Assembly: GCA_022650895.1 (NCBI GenBank)
Contig: JALCQC010000004.1
Coordinates: 62,001 to 126,000, forward strand
Direction of reading: 5' to 3'
DNA: 64,000 nt
Source: Bifidobacteriaceae bacterium
GTDB lineage: Bacteria > Actinomycetota > Actinomycetes > Actinomycetales > Bifidobacteriaceae
Part shown: positions 30,104-34,439 of the stretch, in pieces
How positions within the stretch are numbered: the stretch's first letter is position 1
Layout: every line of letters starts with the position of its first letter
Translations under genes and position numbers: made by a program
Notes under the pieces: model-generated
What the model was told of the DNA's origin: nothing
Seen by the model: the letters and a program-made list of their open reading frames with translations, nothing else
Databases searched by the model: none

Positions 30104-31342
30104 TTACAGATGCTGGAGAGCGGTGATCGGGCTGATCCTGGAGGCCTTCACCGCAGGGTAGATGCCGGCGATGGTTCCCGTGAGAATCCCCAGAAGGGGG
30201 CCGAGCAGTAGCAGCATCGGATCGATAACGGGAGTCCATGACTGCACGAAGCAGACTCCCAAAATGGCCGCGAGGCCCAAACTCATACCGATGAGACCGC
30301 CGATGCCACCGAGCAGTGCGGTCTCTCCCAGTATTTGAGCGAGGATGTGCCGCGGTCGTGCTCCCAAGGCACGCCTCAATCCTATTTCGGGAATTCGTTC
30401 GAAGATTGAGGTGAGGGTGGAGTTTGCAATGCCGACGCACCCAATCAAGAGCGCCAGCACTGCCAATCCGACGAGCAGTCCAGACAGCGAGGACTGAACG
30501 CCTCGCGTCGCCTTCGACCAGTCCTGTGGTGCGTCGACAAGAAAGTTTTGTGGGGCGTCAGGACGCAGCGCGTAAGGAGCTTGGTTGGCGATGAGTCGGG
30601 CCGCTCCCATGTCGGTGCGTAGCATCATTTGTGCCGGTGAGGTAGCAGTCGGCTTCCCATACAATTTCAGGGAGGTCGTGTCGGGAATCACTACTGACGT
30701 GTCGATTTCCGGCAGTTCCGTCACCGAATGAAGAATCCCGAGTACCGAGAAGGGCTCACTGTTGAGATAAATCGTGTGGGGGAGTGTCAGGTCGTTGATT
30801 CCCAGATGTTGCGCTGTCTTTTCACCCAAGACGGCGACGTGTGACTGATGCTGCACATGGAAGGAGTTGAAGGGGATTCCTATCTTCATGCTGTTTCTTG
30901 CAAAATCGAAAAGACCGTTGTCGGCCGCGTAGACCGCGAACCCTGTGGAGTTCTGTGAGCCGAAAGTGGGCTTGGTGCTGATGCTGAGCGGGTGGACGTC
31001 GCTGTCCACCTTCCAATACAGTGAGGCAGACTTCACGCCGTTCAGTGCAGTGATTCTCTTCAGTGAATCGGTAGGAAAGCTCAGCGCGGCCTTTTGAGAG
31101 GTTTTTGGGAGGTTGTCTGTGAGGTGCAGTTGCGTCGCTTCAAGTGTGTTGAATTTTTCGCTGATTTGCCCCGCCGCAGATTGTGTGAATCCGATAATTC
31201 CAATGAAGGTGGCAATTCCCAGAATGGTTCCCGCAATCGTCATGAGCGTTCGTGAGGGTCTGCTCGAGGCGGCGGAAAGAATTTCGTGGAGGAAATCCTT
31301 CACTCTGATGGTCGACTTCTGCTCTTTCTCGGCATGCCTCAT
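30104..31342 (-). CDS. ABC transporter permease, MacB/FtsX type
   Basis: A 412-residue membrane protein. An N-terminal membrane segment (TLMTIAGTILGIATFIGIIGF) is followed by a large extracytoplasmic domain (about 50-280) and three C-terminal segments with the FtsX-domain motif EIGLRRALGARPRHILAQILGE. This is the MacB-type mechanotransmitter permease. Its ATG overlaps the ATPase stop (ATGA). It should act with the ATPase and adaptor encoded just upstream to move a substrate, such as a peptide or antimicrobial, out of the membrane or wall. Substrate unknown. Confidence 0.88.
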   Translation of the reverse strand: MRHAEKEQKSTIRVKDFLHEILSAASSRPSRTLMTIAGTILGIATFIGIIGFTQSAAGQISEKFNTLEATQLHLTDNLPKTSQKAALSFPTDSLKRITALNGVKSASLYWKVDSDVHPLSISTKPTFGSQNSTGFAVYAADNGLFDFARNSMKIGIPFNSFHVQHQSHVAVLGEKTAQHLGINDLTLPHTIYLNSEPFSVLGILHSVTELPEIDTSVVIPDTTSLKLYGKPTATSPAQMMLRTDMGAARLIANQAPYALRPDAPQNFLVDAPQDWSKATRGVQSSLSGLLVGLAVLALLIGCVGIANSTLTSIFERIPEIGLRRALGARPRHILAQILGETALLGGIGGLIGMSLGLAAILGVCFVQSWTPVIDPMLLLLGPLLGILTGTIAGIYPAVKASRISPITALQHL

Positions 31343-32061
31343 ACCTGGGAATCCTCCACTTCGGAAAGGATTCCGTCGCGTGTCCTCACAACGCGGTCTG
31401 CGAAGACGGTTTGCTTCTCGTTGTGCGTCACCATGATGAGCGTCATTCCCTCGGTGTGAAGCTCATCGAAGATGTGCATAATCGAGAGTGAGCGCTGTGA
31501 ATCAAGATTGCCGGTGGGTTCGTCGCACAAGATCAGCTTCGGATTGTTGCATATCGCCCGTGCGATGGCGACGCGCTGTTTCTCTCCTCCCGAAAGATCC
31601 TGTGGGAATGCCGCTGCCTTTTTCGCCAACCCAAGCTTTTCGAGTGCCTCTTCAGCGTGTTTCTGTCGTGTTCGCAGAGGTATTCCGTTATACATTCCAG
31701 CCATGGCAACGTTGTCGAGCGCACTCCGTGATGGGATGAGATGGAAGGCCTGAAAGATGAATCCGATGTCGGCGGCCCTATGATAGGCGATTTCGGAGGG
31801 GGTCATGGTCTCGGTAGGGTGGCCGTCGAAGGCGTAGGAGCCACTTGTCGGGGTGTCAAGCATTCCGATGATGTTGAGCAGAGTTGACTTACCGGAACCC
31901 GATTCGCCGACAATCGCGACAAATTCACCGTAAGAAATGTTCAGATTGACTCCTGCCAGTGCAGTGGTGGGGACGGTGCCACCGTATTGTTTGCCGATGT
32001 CACGCAGTTCTACGAGGCGGGGGCGTGAAATATCTTTCGTCGTCTCCAGTGCGGCTTCCAT
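31339..32061 (-). CDS. ABC transporter ATP-binding protein, MacB/LolD type
   Basis: A 240-residue ATPase with Walker [10 protein letters not shown] (about residue 48), Q-loop [10 protein letters not shown], signature LSGGEKQR and Walker [13 protein letters not shown], with the NLD ending typical of the MacB/LolD/FtsE group. It overlaps the permease by 4 nt and shares one base with the adaptor stop (TAATG), so adaptor, ATPase and permease are translated together. Confidence 0.93.
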
Positions 32062-33362
32062 TAATTGCCGCCGATCAAAACTTTGTCGCCAACGGCGAGT
32101 TCGGACGCGTGGATAGGAGTGATCTGAAGGTAGCCGTTCGCCTCGAGTCCCGGCGTGACCACTACCCTGGAAAGCTCATCCTTTCCGGTGACCAGAATGA
32201 CCGTATCGTTGCCTGAGGAATCTTTGGAGAGCGCACCGATGGGAACGCACATCACCGCGTCTTTCGTGGTGGAACGCACAAGGTGGATAACAGTCTGTTT
32301 GTTGGCGAGGGAGGGATTGATGTCCGTCTTGCAGGACGCCAGTACAGAGACCTTTGAGTCCTTGACCTCGCTGATGGACGTCACGGAGCAGTCCTTGACG
32401 GTGTCTTTCTCATCGGTGGTGACGGTTGAGCCGGTTGCCAGGCTTCCGACTTGTGAGGAATCGATGGTGGCCTGGAGCACCAGTTTCGAGGTGGACAGTG
32501 ACATGACGTTCCCTGATGCTGAACTTCCTAGGGAGGTGGTCACTGCGGAAACCGTGGCGGGCAAGTGATTCACGAACACCACTTCGTTGCGAGGAAGAAT
32601 GGCGCCAGTTTTGGACTCCAATTCTGCGAGTTCAGTCTTTGCCTCGGTGATTGCCGCGGAATCTTTTGCTTTTCGTGCCGCGGTGAGTGCGGCACGCGCT
32701 TGGAGCAATGACGTATTCTCGCTTCCGGTATCGTCATCGGTTGTCTGCGCCTCGTAATGATTGTTCCTGTACAACGCGCTGACGGCGGCCTTCGTAGCTG
32801 TTCCGTAGATGCCATCAACGGAGGCGCGGCTGAGTAATCCAACATCGGCTAGTGCGTTTTGAAGCTGCGTGACGTCGGGCCCGGTCATGGAGGGGCGTAA
32901 ATCCCTGTAGGCGGGAAAAGTGCCTCTGAGAACGAAGACGGGGCGTCCGGAAATTTCGATGGCGACGTTGCCCTCCCGAACGCTATCACCCTTTTTCAAA
33001 GGGAGCTTTGTTGTCACCAGGGCACCGGTTGTTCCCTGTGAATCTATATCTTGCCCCGTTGAGGCATCGGAGGAGTCGGCCTGGGAACTGTTTGCGGAAC
33101 TGTTCGCTTGGCCTGTTCCAGAAATGGTAATGACATTCTGTGCTTTGACGGTTGCCTGAGCATCAAGAATGTCACTCACTACTTTGGAGTCCACTTTTGA
33201 CGTGATGAGCGTGGGCGTAGGGGCAGCGGTCTGTGCGGCGATCTCTTGGGGTGACTTCATGAGCCTTCCGGCGAAAAAACCTATGATTGCGGCGATCACG
33301 GAGACAACACCTACGAGAAGGAGCCACTTTTTCTTCCATGAACCCTTTGCTTTAAAACTCAT
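32061..33362 (-). CDS. Adaptor/membrane-fusion-like protein with peptidoglycan-binding domain
   Basis: A 433-residue protein: a short basic cytoplasmic end, one membrane anchor (WLLLVGVVSVIAAIIGFFAGRL, about 14-35), HlyD-like beta regions, and an inserted peptidoglycan-binding fold (MTGPDVTQLQNALADVGLL and VDGIYGTATKAAVSALYRN, about 155-200) with the typical VDGIYG motif. A short coiled coil follows (KAKDSAAITEAKTELAELE). In Gram-positive bacteria such proteins link a MacB-like ABC pump to the wall. A Ser/Asp/Gln-rich stretch near residue 85 is low complexity. Confidence 0.88.
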   Translation of the reverse strand: MSFKAKGSWKKKWLLLVGVVSVIAAIIGFFAGRLMKSPQEIAAQTAAPTPTLITSKVDSKVVSDILDAQATVKAQNVITISGTGQANSSANSSQADSSDASTGQDIDSQGTTGALVTTKLPLKKGDSVREGNVAIEISGRPVFVLRGTFPAYRDLRPSMTGPDVTQLQNALADVGLLSRASVDGIYGTATKAAVSALYRNNHYEAQTTDDDTGSENTSLLQARAALTAARKAKDSAAITEAKTELAELESKTGAILPRNEVVFVNHLPATVSAVTTSLGSSASGNVMSLSTSKLVLQATIDSSQVGSLATGSTVTTDEKDTVKDCSVTSISEVKDSKVSVLASCKTDINPSLANKQTVIHLVRSTTKDAVMCVPIGALSKDSSGNDTVILVTGKDELSRVVVTPGLEANGYLQITPIHASELAVGDKVLIGGN

Positions 33363-33452
33363 GGCGACGAACTCCTTTGGAAGGCTGTGGCTTCGCTCTC
33401 TCGCGAAATACTGATGTCATTGACGATGCCTTCGTTGGTTTTATTTCTCCCG

Positions 33453-34439
33453 TTACTCTCCTGGTTTTGAAAGCTCGGTTTGTGCTTTTTTGAAGATGGA
33501 AGCCGAAATTTCCTTGATTTTGTCCATCGTCGCTTGATTATCCTTGATGGAACGAGTCTCATAGGCATTCATGGTCGTCAGAATCGTTTTCATGAAGTCG
33601 GTCGATACCTTGCATTCCGCATCTGCGACGGCAGTTGTTCTTTCGGACGCATCAATGGTTCTTTCGTTGTTCTTTTTTCTGTATGAATCCACAATGACGC
33701 GTGGCTCGTCATAGGACAGTCCCTTTTTCTTCATGCAGGCGGACCACTGCGACATCGCGCTCTGCACCTTCGCATCGTTGATGGCGTTTGCATCAGCATT
33801 CATTCGCGCCTTCTCAAAAGCGCTGATTTGCGAGAACCATTGGGCGTTGTAACCCAATGCGGCTCGTGAGATATCGTCACATCCGGTGTCTTCTTGGTTC
33901 ACCAGTGCGTGCAGATATCCGGGCTTGTTTTCATCGCTTGCGGTATCAGTGCTTTGAGAGGACGCTGCATCGTTTCCATTGTTTCCATCGTCTTCGTATT
34001 GGAATGTGTAGCCGTTGAGTTTTGCATCTTCGGGATCCGATGGCCCCCATATCGTCTTCCAGCTCGAGTTTTTTGCGGAAGAGCTGAAGGCTGCGGGTTG
34101 ATATTTATATCCCTTTTTTGCCATACATTTTTTGGTGAGTTTATCAGTAGCGGACTGTACGACTTGCTGTTGGTCCGCGTTCATGAAGTAGGCGTCGAAA
34201 GGTGAGGAATATTTCATCTCATCATTTATTTTGTCGAAAGATTTTTTCTTCTGTTCCGTGCTGTCTTTTTTCTGGTTGTCAGAGCTTTGATTTTTCGGAG
34301 CGGTGCTCTTGTAGAGATCCTCGGCCGAAAGTGAGGACTTCTCCGCATCGTTTTGTGAACCGCAACCGGCACAAAATAGACCAATGATTGCAATGACTGA
34401 CAAGGCTCTGGAGAGTGTCCTCACTAACGGATTTCCCAT
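33453..34439 (-). CDS. Lipoprotein of unknown function, first gene of the export operon
   Basis: A 328-residue lipoprotein with signal RTLSRALSVIAIIGLFCAGC; the lipobox Cys is about residue 27. The mature part is rich in Lys, Asp, Ser and Gln, with conserved-looking Cys in DKLTKKCMAKKGYKY, TGCDDISRAALGYNAQW, WSACMKKKGLSYDEPR and ECKVSTDF. These CMKKxGY-type motifs occur twice, suggesting two related repeats with Cys pairs. It has AAGAGG 5 nt before ATG and a TATGAT -10 candidate at 34475. The DNA is visibly AT-richer than its neighbours, suggesting transfer. It lies 90 nt before the adaptor gene on the same strand, so it is probably an accessory part of that ABC system. Confidence 0.8.
   Translation of the reverse strand: MGNPLVRTLSRALSVIAIIGLFCAGCGSQNDAEKSSLSAEDLYKSTAPKNQSSDNQKKDSTEQKKKSFDKINDEMKYSSPFDAYFMNADQQQVVQSATDKLTKKCMAKKGYKYQPAAFSSSAKNSSWKTIWGPSDPEDAKLNGYTFQYEDDGNNGNDAASSQSTDTASDENKPGYLHALVNQEDTGCDDISRAALGYNAQWFSQISAFEKARMNADANAINDAKVQSAMSQWSACMKKKGLSYDEPRVIVDSYRKKNNERTIDASERTTAVADAECKVSTDFMKTILTTMNAYETRSIKDNQATMDKIKEISASIFKKAQTELSKPGE

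What the first reader, a model, noticed from the sequence alone, without database searches (positions are those of the whole stretch)
30104..34439. Lipoprotein plus peptidoglycan-binding adaptor plus MacB-like ABC operon
Four co-directional genes encode a Cys-bearing lipoprotein with two CMKKxGY-type repeats, an HlyD-like adaptor carrying a peptidoglycan-binding fold, an ATPase and an FtsX-type permease. The adaptor-ATPase-permease trio is known for peptide or antimicrobial export; the dedicated lipoprotein at the front is not one I recognise. It could be a substrate receptor, an immunity lipoprotein or a sensor for the pump. Its lower GC suggests a later addition.
Basis: partly seen in the sequence, partly recalled or inferred. 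Interest (0 to 1): 0.5.

Follow-up and report, generated by a model that had tools for sequence, protein, structure and literature searches.

The report
Lipoprotein-led MacAB-type toxin-protection operon
A Bifidobacterium-type bacterium carries a four-gene operon in which an uncatalogued surface lipoprotein leads a wall-binding molecular pump; relatives elsewhere often pair this lipoprotein with small secreted proteins, which suggests protection against protein antimicrobials, here kept without such a gene beside it.

Summary
The four genes are real and intact at the stated coordinates (minus strand). The lipoprotein has no Pfam or NCBIfam family. A profile places it in a large actinobacterial family with a lipid Cys, four more invariant Cys and two CMxxKGY-like repeats (101 of 394 class genomes). 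It is a regular fourth part of this pump: all 11 adaptor homologues in 151 family genomes, and 24 of 30 best class adaptors, have it upstream. It also occurs without the pump. There, and in many pump operons, it lies beside a small, predicted-secreted protein (I36/βγ-crystallin-like or SH3-like): 33 of 66 counted lipoproteins have an I36 gene within 1 kb, all same strand, 0.07 expected. A Streptomyces plasmid holds the five-gene order. The window operon and a second one in this genome lack the small gene. Best reading: immunity lipoprotein plus MacAB-like extrusion pump (works like LanI+LanFEG or YknWXYZ), here an orphan. Function is inferred. Against it: 15 of 18 further pump-linked loci show no partner.

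The parts
33453..34439 (-). lipoprotein gene, 328 aa, 4-Cys family without a Pfam or NCBIfam model
34362..34364 (-). codon of C26, likely lipidated Cys (sequence FCAGC; Cys at -3 is unusual for a lipobox, recalled)
   Evidence: sequence; invariant in the 17 rows
34107..34127 (-). repeat 1, CMAKKGY (C105)
33717..33737 (-). repeat 2, CMKKKGL (C235)
32061..33362 (-). MacA-type adaptor with one membrane helix, 433 aa
   Evidence: no HlyD model hit
32775..32885 (-). PG_binding_1 domain of the adaptor (residues 160-196)
   Evidence: 29.8 bits, cut-off 23
31339..32061 (-). ABC ATPase, 240 aa; shares one base with the adaptor gene and four with the permease gene
30104..31342 (-). MacB/FtsX-type permease, 412 aa

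Best explanation
The operon is a four-part extracytoplasmic protection device. The lipoprotein, held on the outer face of the membrane, captures a small disulfide-bonded secreted protein (predicted: one of the SH3-like type that lies next to its nearest relatives in B. thermophilum and B. apri). The MacB-like ATPase and permease then use ATP on the cytoplasmic side to push the captured protein out through the MacA-like adaptor, whose peptidoglycan-binding domain docks the tube in the wall. Where the secreted gene is present the set is self-protection; in this genome no such gene was found, so the operon is an orphan immunity set against the proteins of neighbours. Shown: gene order, families, conservation, genomic pairing. 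Inferred: capture, extrusion, that the secreted proteins are antimicrobial, and the orphan role.
For: (1) Pairing: 33 of 66 counted lipoproteins in 40 genomes have an I36 gene over cut-off within 1 kb, all 33 on the same strand, 31 upstream, 0.07 expected; putting six dropped weak places back gives 33 of 72. A small predicted-secreted ORF ends within 300 bp upstream of 40 of 59 class lipoproteins against 13 of 255 control genes. (2) Pump link: 11 of 11 family adaptors and 24 of 30 class adaptors have the lipoprotein upstream. (3) Operons with partner, lipoprotein, adaptor, ATPase and permease: B. thermophilum and B. apri, same-genus G016, a Streptomyces plasmid. (4) Partner type is clustered on the lipoprotein tree: 12 changes against 21.4 shuffled, 0 of 200 as low; the window copy groups with two SH3-type rows (99*), the other own copies with the betagamma-type clade (99*). 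(5) Arrays of partner+lipoprotein pairs in G042 and G020. (6) In the family sample no full-length partner of the SH3 or betagamma type was found without a lipoprotein (12 of 12 and 6 of 6), though most of these were rows of the query profiles, while lipoproteins do occur without a partner. (7) A Gram-positive MacB-type pump, YknXYZ, protects against a Sec-exported disulfide-bonded toxin (passages of PMC5985334); LanI lipoprotein and LanFEG transporter act together in lantibiotic immunity (passages of PMC4828448).
Against: No secreted partner beside the window operon or the second own operon, and no SH3-type, betagamma-type or I36 match in the 88% complete assembly. Of 18 further lipoprotein-adaptor loci examined, 15 show no partner (13 of them from one family, f28; the stretches were chosen from adaptor hits not yet fetched), so the set may serve another task. 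No antibacterial activity is known to me for the SH3-like partners, and I36 is named for a protease inhibitor. The fold of the lipoprotein was not recognised. Only 35 of 105 I36 places have a lipoprotein within 1 kb. On the tree the betagamma label alone (88 of 500 shuffles as low) and the 'none' label (236 of 500) are not clustered.
Confidence: 0.45

Rival explanations
1. General four-component envelope pump: the lipoprotein is a substrate-binding or assembly part of a MacAB-like exporter that clears assorted amphiphilic compounds or antibiotics; the secreted neighbours elsewhere are a side use.
For: 15 of 18 lipoprotein-adaptor loci (13 of them from family f28, L190-L202) show no secreted partner, nor do the window and the second own operon. 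Spr0693-0695 of S. pneumoniae is tied to resistance to antibiotics and antimicrobial peptides (abstract and passages of PMC5768738).
Against: 47 of 58 class loci have the lipoprotein without the full pump, 40 of 59 class lipoproteins have a small predicted-secreted ORF just upstream, and the lipoprotein tree follows partner type taken over all labels.
Confidence: 0.3
2. Partner docking: the lipoprotein is a surface anchor or carrier for a useful secreted protein (protease inhibitor, wall-binding or adhesion protein), and the pump releases or displays it.
For: I36 models match many partners; tight co-directional pairing; weak SH3-like hints in the SH3 group.
Against: Would not explain lipoproteins and pumps in a genome where no partner was found.
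Confidence: 0.15
3. Sensor: the lipoprotein reports envelope stress or a peptide to the pump or a regulator.
For: MacB-like transporters outside tripartite pumps are said to take part in antibiotic sensing (PMC5985334, abstract passage).
Against: The genes directly beside the operon read as an oxidoreductase and a cysteine desulfurase, not a two-component system (read from the translations, not searched).
Confidence: 0.06

Closest known systems
YknWXYZ of Bacillus (protection against the SDP toxin)
   Same: Four-gene set; MacA-like adaptor, separate ATPase and MacB-like permease; acts against a Sec-exported peptide with one disulfide bond (passages of PMC5985334; abstract start of PMC4887032).
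   Different: YknW is called a membrane protein there, not a lipoprotein; a PG_binding_1 domain in YknX is not mentioned in the passages seen.
LanI + LanFEG lantibiotic immunity (NisI/NisFEG, SpaI/SpaFEG)
   Same: Immunity lipoprotein plus ABC transporter that act together in producer strains (passages of PMC4828448).
   Different: NisI and SpaI have a beta-sheet core (same passages), whereas the confident part of the P0001 model is helical; no LanI among PDB sequences matched by the profile; LanFEG is not MacB-like (recalled).
Spr0693-0694-0695 MacAB-like pump of S. pneumoniae
   Same: Adaptor, ATPase and MacB-like permease in a Gram-positive; the permease P0004 matches chain 5xu1_M at E 1.8e-14.
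   Different: The operon is described with three genes and no lipoprotein (abstract and passages of PMC5768738).
Lactococcin 972 type ABC (TIGR03608/TIGR01654)
   Same: ATPase P0003 scores 194.2 bits to TIGR03608; in G042 a lipoprotein relative lies near a TIGR01654-like protein (L042).
   Different: Below both curated cut-offs; the window permease is a MacB type.
Peptidase inhibitor family I36 (PF03995)
   Same: Many partners of the lipoprotein in other genomes belong to it.
   Different: Not found in the window's genome; the SH3-like and betagamma-type partners of Bifidobacteriaceae are not matched by it.

Membership tests
MacAB-like (type VII) transporter | MacB_PCD extracytoplasmic domain and FtsX domain in the permease | tested here: met
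   58.6 and 68.1 bits, over the cut-offs; MacB structures
MacAB-like (type VII) transporter | Intact ABC ATPase | tested here: met
MacAB-like (type VII) transporter | MacA/HlyD-type adaptor | tested here: inconclusive
   only PG_binding_1 and one membrane helix found; no HlyD model
YknWXYZ | fourth part is the membrane protein YknW | tested here: not met
   the fourth part here is a predicted lipoprotein with one N-terminal hydrophobic stretch; YknW called a membrane protein (passage)
LanI lipoprotein (NisI, SpaI, MlbQ) | sequence relation to solved LanI proteins | tested here: not met
   profile A1 against PDB sequences lists three SLT-domain chains and no LanI at E up to 1; a miss by sequence does not exclude the fold
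LanI lipoprotein (NisI, SpaI, MlbQ) | beta-sheet fold of NisI/SpaI | tested here: inconclusive
   helical where confident, but mean pLDDT 56.6
Bacteriocin immunity system | antimicrobial gene in the same operon | tested here: not met
   no secreted gene beside the window operon; a candidate is present in many relatives
Bacteriocin immunity system | protects against its partner | not testable with these tools
   needs a bench test
Lactococcin 972 ABC (TIGR03608) | score over the curated cut-off | tested here: not met
   194.2 bits, cut-off 254.85

The most novel reading that the evidence does not exclude
Actinomycetota carry a widespread, undescribed class of protein antimicrobials: small secreted betagamma-crystallin-like (misnamed 'peptidase inhibitor I36') and SH3-like proteins, each with its own 4-Cys immunity lipoprotein and, in many cases, a wall-docked MacAB-like pump that throws the protein out; lipoproteins and partners diversify together, form arrays, sit on plasmids, and leave orphan immunity operons such as the one in this window.
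Probability: 0.32. Interest if true: 0.75.

Novelty: new variant of a known kind. Interest (0 to 1): 0.52.

Why it matters
If true, a large set of genes now called 'hypothetical protein' or 'peptidase inhibitor family I36' in Streptomyces, Bifidobacterium and relatives would become candidate protein antimicrobials with paired immunity genes. It would also give a role to the peptidoglycan-binding adaptors of MacAB-like pumps in bacteria that have no outer membrane to bridge. Both claims can be tested with one purified partner protein and one deletion strain.

Tried and rejected
Viral contigs with the single lipoprotein: 4 pattern stretches, no relative. PDB sequence search with the lipoprotein alone: only weak hits to Adhesin A, E 0.06-0.27, taken as chance. 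NCBIfam hit of one secreted partner to the JUQZ/BLB8 bacteriocin model at E 0.025 with 14.8 bits (cut-off 40): a lead only; two others of its type had no NCBIfam hit, and the JUQZ-1 paper (passages) holds neither the word lipoprotein nor immunity. Pfam COX17 in 3 of 17 lipoproteins, best E 2.7e-4: perhaps a Cys-paired helical hairpin, not followed. Structure of the SH3-like partner: mean pLDDT 54.1, not searched further. Foldseek of the lipoprotein model: no match at E 0.001 or better. Remnant of a secreted gene: only chance-level tblastn hits in the window, L082 and L083, none in the gap upstream of the window lipoprotein. Pump near the lone third own lipoprotein (L083): none found. B. thermophilum bacteriocin papers (listing only): not linked to these genes. 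Promoter and terminator scan: no more sites than in shuffles.

Rows dropped before the count: the four own-genome places, two duplicate fragments (G375:C2, G151:C6) and six weak or partial places (G166:C30, G237:C15, G169:C25, G304:C4, G385:C12, G342:C12), none of which has an I36 place within 1 kb; one equally weak place with an I36 neighbour (G311:C1:3142687) was kept. With the six put back it is 33 of 72; without the kept weak one, 32 of 65. G169:C25, G304:C4 and G342:C12 later proved to be pump-linked lipoproteins, and one search did not list all its matches.
Full report
Check of the observation. The window holds four intact genes on the minus strand at 34439-33453, 33362-32061, 32061-31339 and 31342-30104. 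The last three overlap by one and four bases. The ATPase has all four motifs looked for. The permease carries FtsX and MacB_PCD domains and its nearest solved relatives by sequence are MacB structures, with the S. pneumoniae permease 5xu1_M next. The adaptor has one membrane helix and a PG_binding_1 domain over the cut-off, but no HlyD model was hit. The lipoprotein matches no Pfam family and only chance-level NCBIfam models. It has a hydrophobic N terminus ending in FCAGC and Cys at 105, 187, 235 and 276. The gene upstream reads as an oxidoreductase on the same strand and ends 74 bases before the lipoprotein start.

The lipoprotein family. A single-sequence search found matches in 10 of 151 family genomes, own genome included. 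An alignment of 17 rows (A1) shows five invariant Cys: C26 and the four others. The profile matches 14 of 151 family genomes and 101 of 394 class genomes, own genome included, and four copies in the window's own genome: the window; a tandem pair on contig C5 that leads a second complete pump operon (L082); and a lone copy on C25 (L083). G042 has 14 matched places and G020 six. Predicted structure: mean pLDDT 56.6, helical, with block means over 70 at about residues 81-110, 191-240 and 271-328; no fold match at E 0.001.

Is it dedicated to the pump? Homologues of the window adaptor at E 1e-10 or better number 11 genes in 9 of 151 family genomes. All 11 have the lipoprotein upstream on the same strand: in ten it is the next gene, in G042:C65 the ATPase lies between; the G108 copy is broken and the G042:C34 copy is cut by a contig start. 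In the class, an adaptor profile matched 60 of 197 genomes. Of the 30 loci returned, one per genome and own genome included, 24 have a lipoprotein-family ORF upstream in the 1.5 kb flank by a model built from Bifidobacteriaceae rows alone (25 by a broader model; the L182 match is borderline and fails in the longer stretch). The six misses are among the weaker adaptor matches. In the other direction, of 58 class loci fetched mainly by lipoprotein score (L084-L141), 11 hold all three pump genes, eight of them co-directional. So the pump of this kind usually comes with the lipoprotein, but the lipoprotein often comes without the pump.

The partner. Neighbours of the lipoprotein in the class loci were clustered without prior choice. 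The largest cluster after the lipoprotein itself is a small predicted-secreted protein in 19 loci; two more such clusters occur in 10 and 4 loci. Other recurring clusters were the ABC ATPase (16 loci), a long helicase-like protein (13), a 120 aa membrane protein (10), and further ones in 9 or fewer, some of them shared genome neighbourhoods of near relatives. Of ten partners scanned with Pfam, five match Inhibitor_I36 over the cut-off, two below it and three not at all. An independent Pfam search of 41 genomes matched 39. Of 66 counted lipoproteins in 40 of these genomes, 33 have one of 105 over-cut-off I36 places within 1 kb, all 33 on the same strand and 31 upstream, 0.07 expected; 33 of 72 if six dropped weak places are put back. 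With a crude signal-peptide rule, 40 of 59 lipoproteins against 13 of 255 other genes of the same loci have a small secreted ORF ending within 300 bp upstream; four of the 19 misses (L106, L111, L116, L136) have one directly downstream. In Bifidobacteriaceae the partners fall into an SH3-like group (A2), a betagamma-crystallin-like group (A3) and a third type in G020. The names SH3-like and betagamma-like rest on weak matches and appearance: GsmA E 0.0012 for one member, 20 PDB chains at E 0.04-0.8 for A2, nearly all SH3-kinase entries, and nothing for A3. Profile searches with A2 and A3 found 12 and 6 full-length copies, all directly upstream of a lipoprotein, besides two contig-end fragments and four matches at E above 0.001; but most of the full-length copies were rows of the profiles themselves.

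The window copy. No A2, A3 or I36 match was found in its genome (assembly 88% complete), and no remnant lies upstream. The same-genus genome G016 has partner, lipoprotein, adaptor, ATPase and permease in order; its nearest own-genome relative, the C5 operon, sits between other genes and lacks the partner. On a tree of 38 lipoproteins the labels (SH3, betagamma, third type, I36, none; the I36 label partly given by eye) need 12 changes against 21.4 in shuffles, 0 of 200 as low; taken alone, the betagamma and 'none' labels are not clustered. The window protein groups with B. thermophilum and B. apri (SH3-type partner, 99*), the other own copies with the betagamma-type clade (99*) (long branches make deep joins unsure). 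The window lipoprotein is the most GC-poor of 42 ORFs (0.471); own C5 lipoproteins are 0.48 against a 0.59-0.60 pump; in G016 partner and lipoprotein are 0.39 and 0.42 against 0.55-0.56; in B. thermophilum and B. apri the lipoprotein does not differ from the pump, only the partner gene is slightly lower.

Named records. Relatives fetched by name: B. thermophilum DSM 20210 and JCM 1207 and B. apri DSM 100238. In plasmids, the lipoprotein matched 9 records, 6 of them Streptomyces. Of the three opened, Streptomyces sp. NBC_01006 has the complete five-gene order: a hypothetical protein that matches an I36-type partner, a hypothetical protein (the lipoprotein match), peptidoglycan-binding protein, ABC ATP-binding protein, ABC permease. 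The S. yangpuensis and K. aureofaciens plasmids have a small hypothetical gene directly upstream and no pump listed nearby; these two small genes were not tested further.

Mechanism. The partners have predicted signal peptides, so the pump is not needed to bring them across the membrane. MacB is described as doing work outside the membrane, and YknXYZ as protecting from a Sec-exported toxin (passages of PMC5985334). Spr0693 was modelled as a tube from the membrane face to the peptidoglycan (passages of PMC5768738). NisI and NisFEG show that a lipoprotein and an ABC transporter can give joint immunity (passages of PMC4828448). The simplest reading of the gene sets is therefore capture by the lipoprotein and extrusion by the pump. 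Capture, extrusion and toxicity of the partners are inferences.

Results against this. Of 19 further adaptor loci fetched, 18 have the lipoprotein; only three of these (L203, L205, L207) show a small secreted ORF within 450 bp upstream, and 15 do not, 13 of them from one family (f28, L190-L202). Two-thirds of I36 places (70 of 105) have no lipoprotein within 1 kb. The window's own genome has two pumps and four lipoproteins and no recognised partner. These facts also fit a general four-part envelope pump, which I keep as the main rival.

Novelty. Six paper searches around this combination listed no paper whose title or abstract start describes an I36 or betagamma-crystallin protein paired with a lipoprotein or a MacAB-like pump; the library lacks most subscription journals, the lists were capped, and I read only passages of four papers. 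The working principle is known (lipoprotein plus ABC immunity, MacAB-like protection); the lipoprotein family, its partners and the peptidoglycan-binding version appear undescribed. I file it as a new variant of a known kind.

Noticed in passing
G000 contig C5, L082:8178-13325: Second complete operon in the window's genome with two tandem lipoproteins (78% identical) before adaptor, ATPase and permease; also without a secreted partner.
   Followed up: partly
L032, L033, L034, L035, L147 (genome G042): Arrays of secreted-protein + lipoprotein pairs; 14 matched lipoprotein places in one 1.8 Mb genome.
   Followed up: partly
L032:1819-3063: A lipoprotein ORF whose N-terminal extension reads like the signal peptide of a secreted partner, as if the partner had been lost by deletion.
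   Followed up: no
L042:5436-9801: Lipoprotein relatives next to an ATPase and a 672 aa protein like TIGR01654 (bacteriocin-associated membrane protein, 44.9 bits, below cut-off).
   Followed up: partly
L190-L202: In one family (code f28) lipoprotein and pump genes lie together without a secreted partner in all 13 loci fetched; the lipoproteins are longer, about 360 matched residues.
   Followed up: partly
L209 (NZ_CP108702.1): Complete five-gene operon on a linear Streptomyces plasmid that also lists a mobilization protein nearby (typed non-mobilizable by MOB-suite).
   Followed up: yes
A1 rows: 3 of 17 lipoproteins match Pfam COX17 weakly (best E 2.7e-4), perhaps a Cys-paired helical hairpin; two such halves could explain the two CMxxKGY repeats.
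   Followed up: no
window:37236-40751: 1171 aa secreted protein with a C-terminal LAATG-type end and membrane anchor, by reading likely a sortase-anchored surface or pilin protein.
   Followed up: no
L047 (genome G019): Remains of lipoprotein, adaptor and permease broken into short frames: a decayed operon.
   Followed up: no
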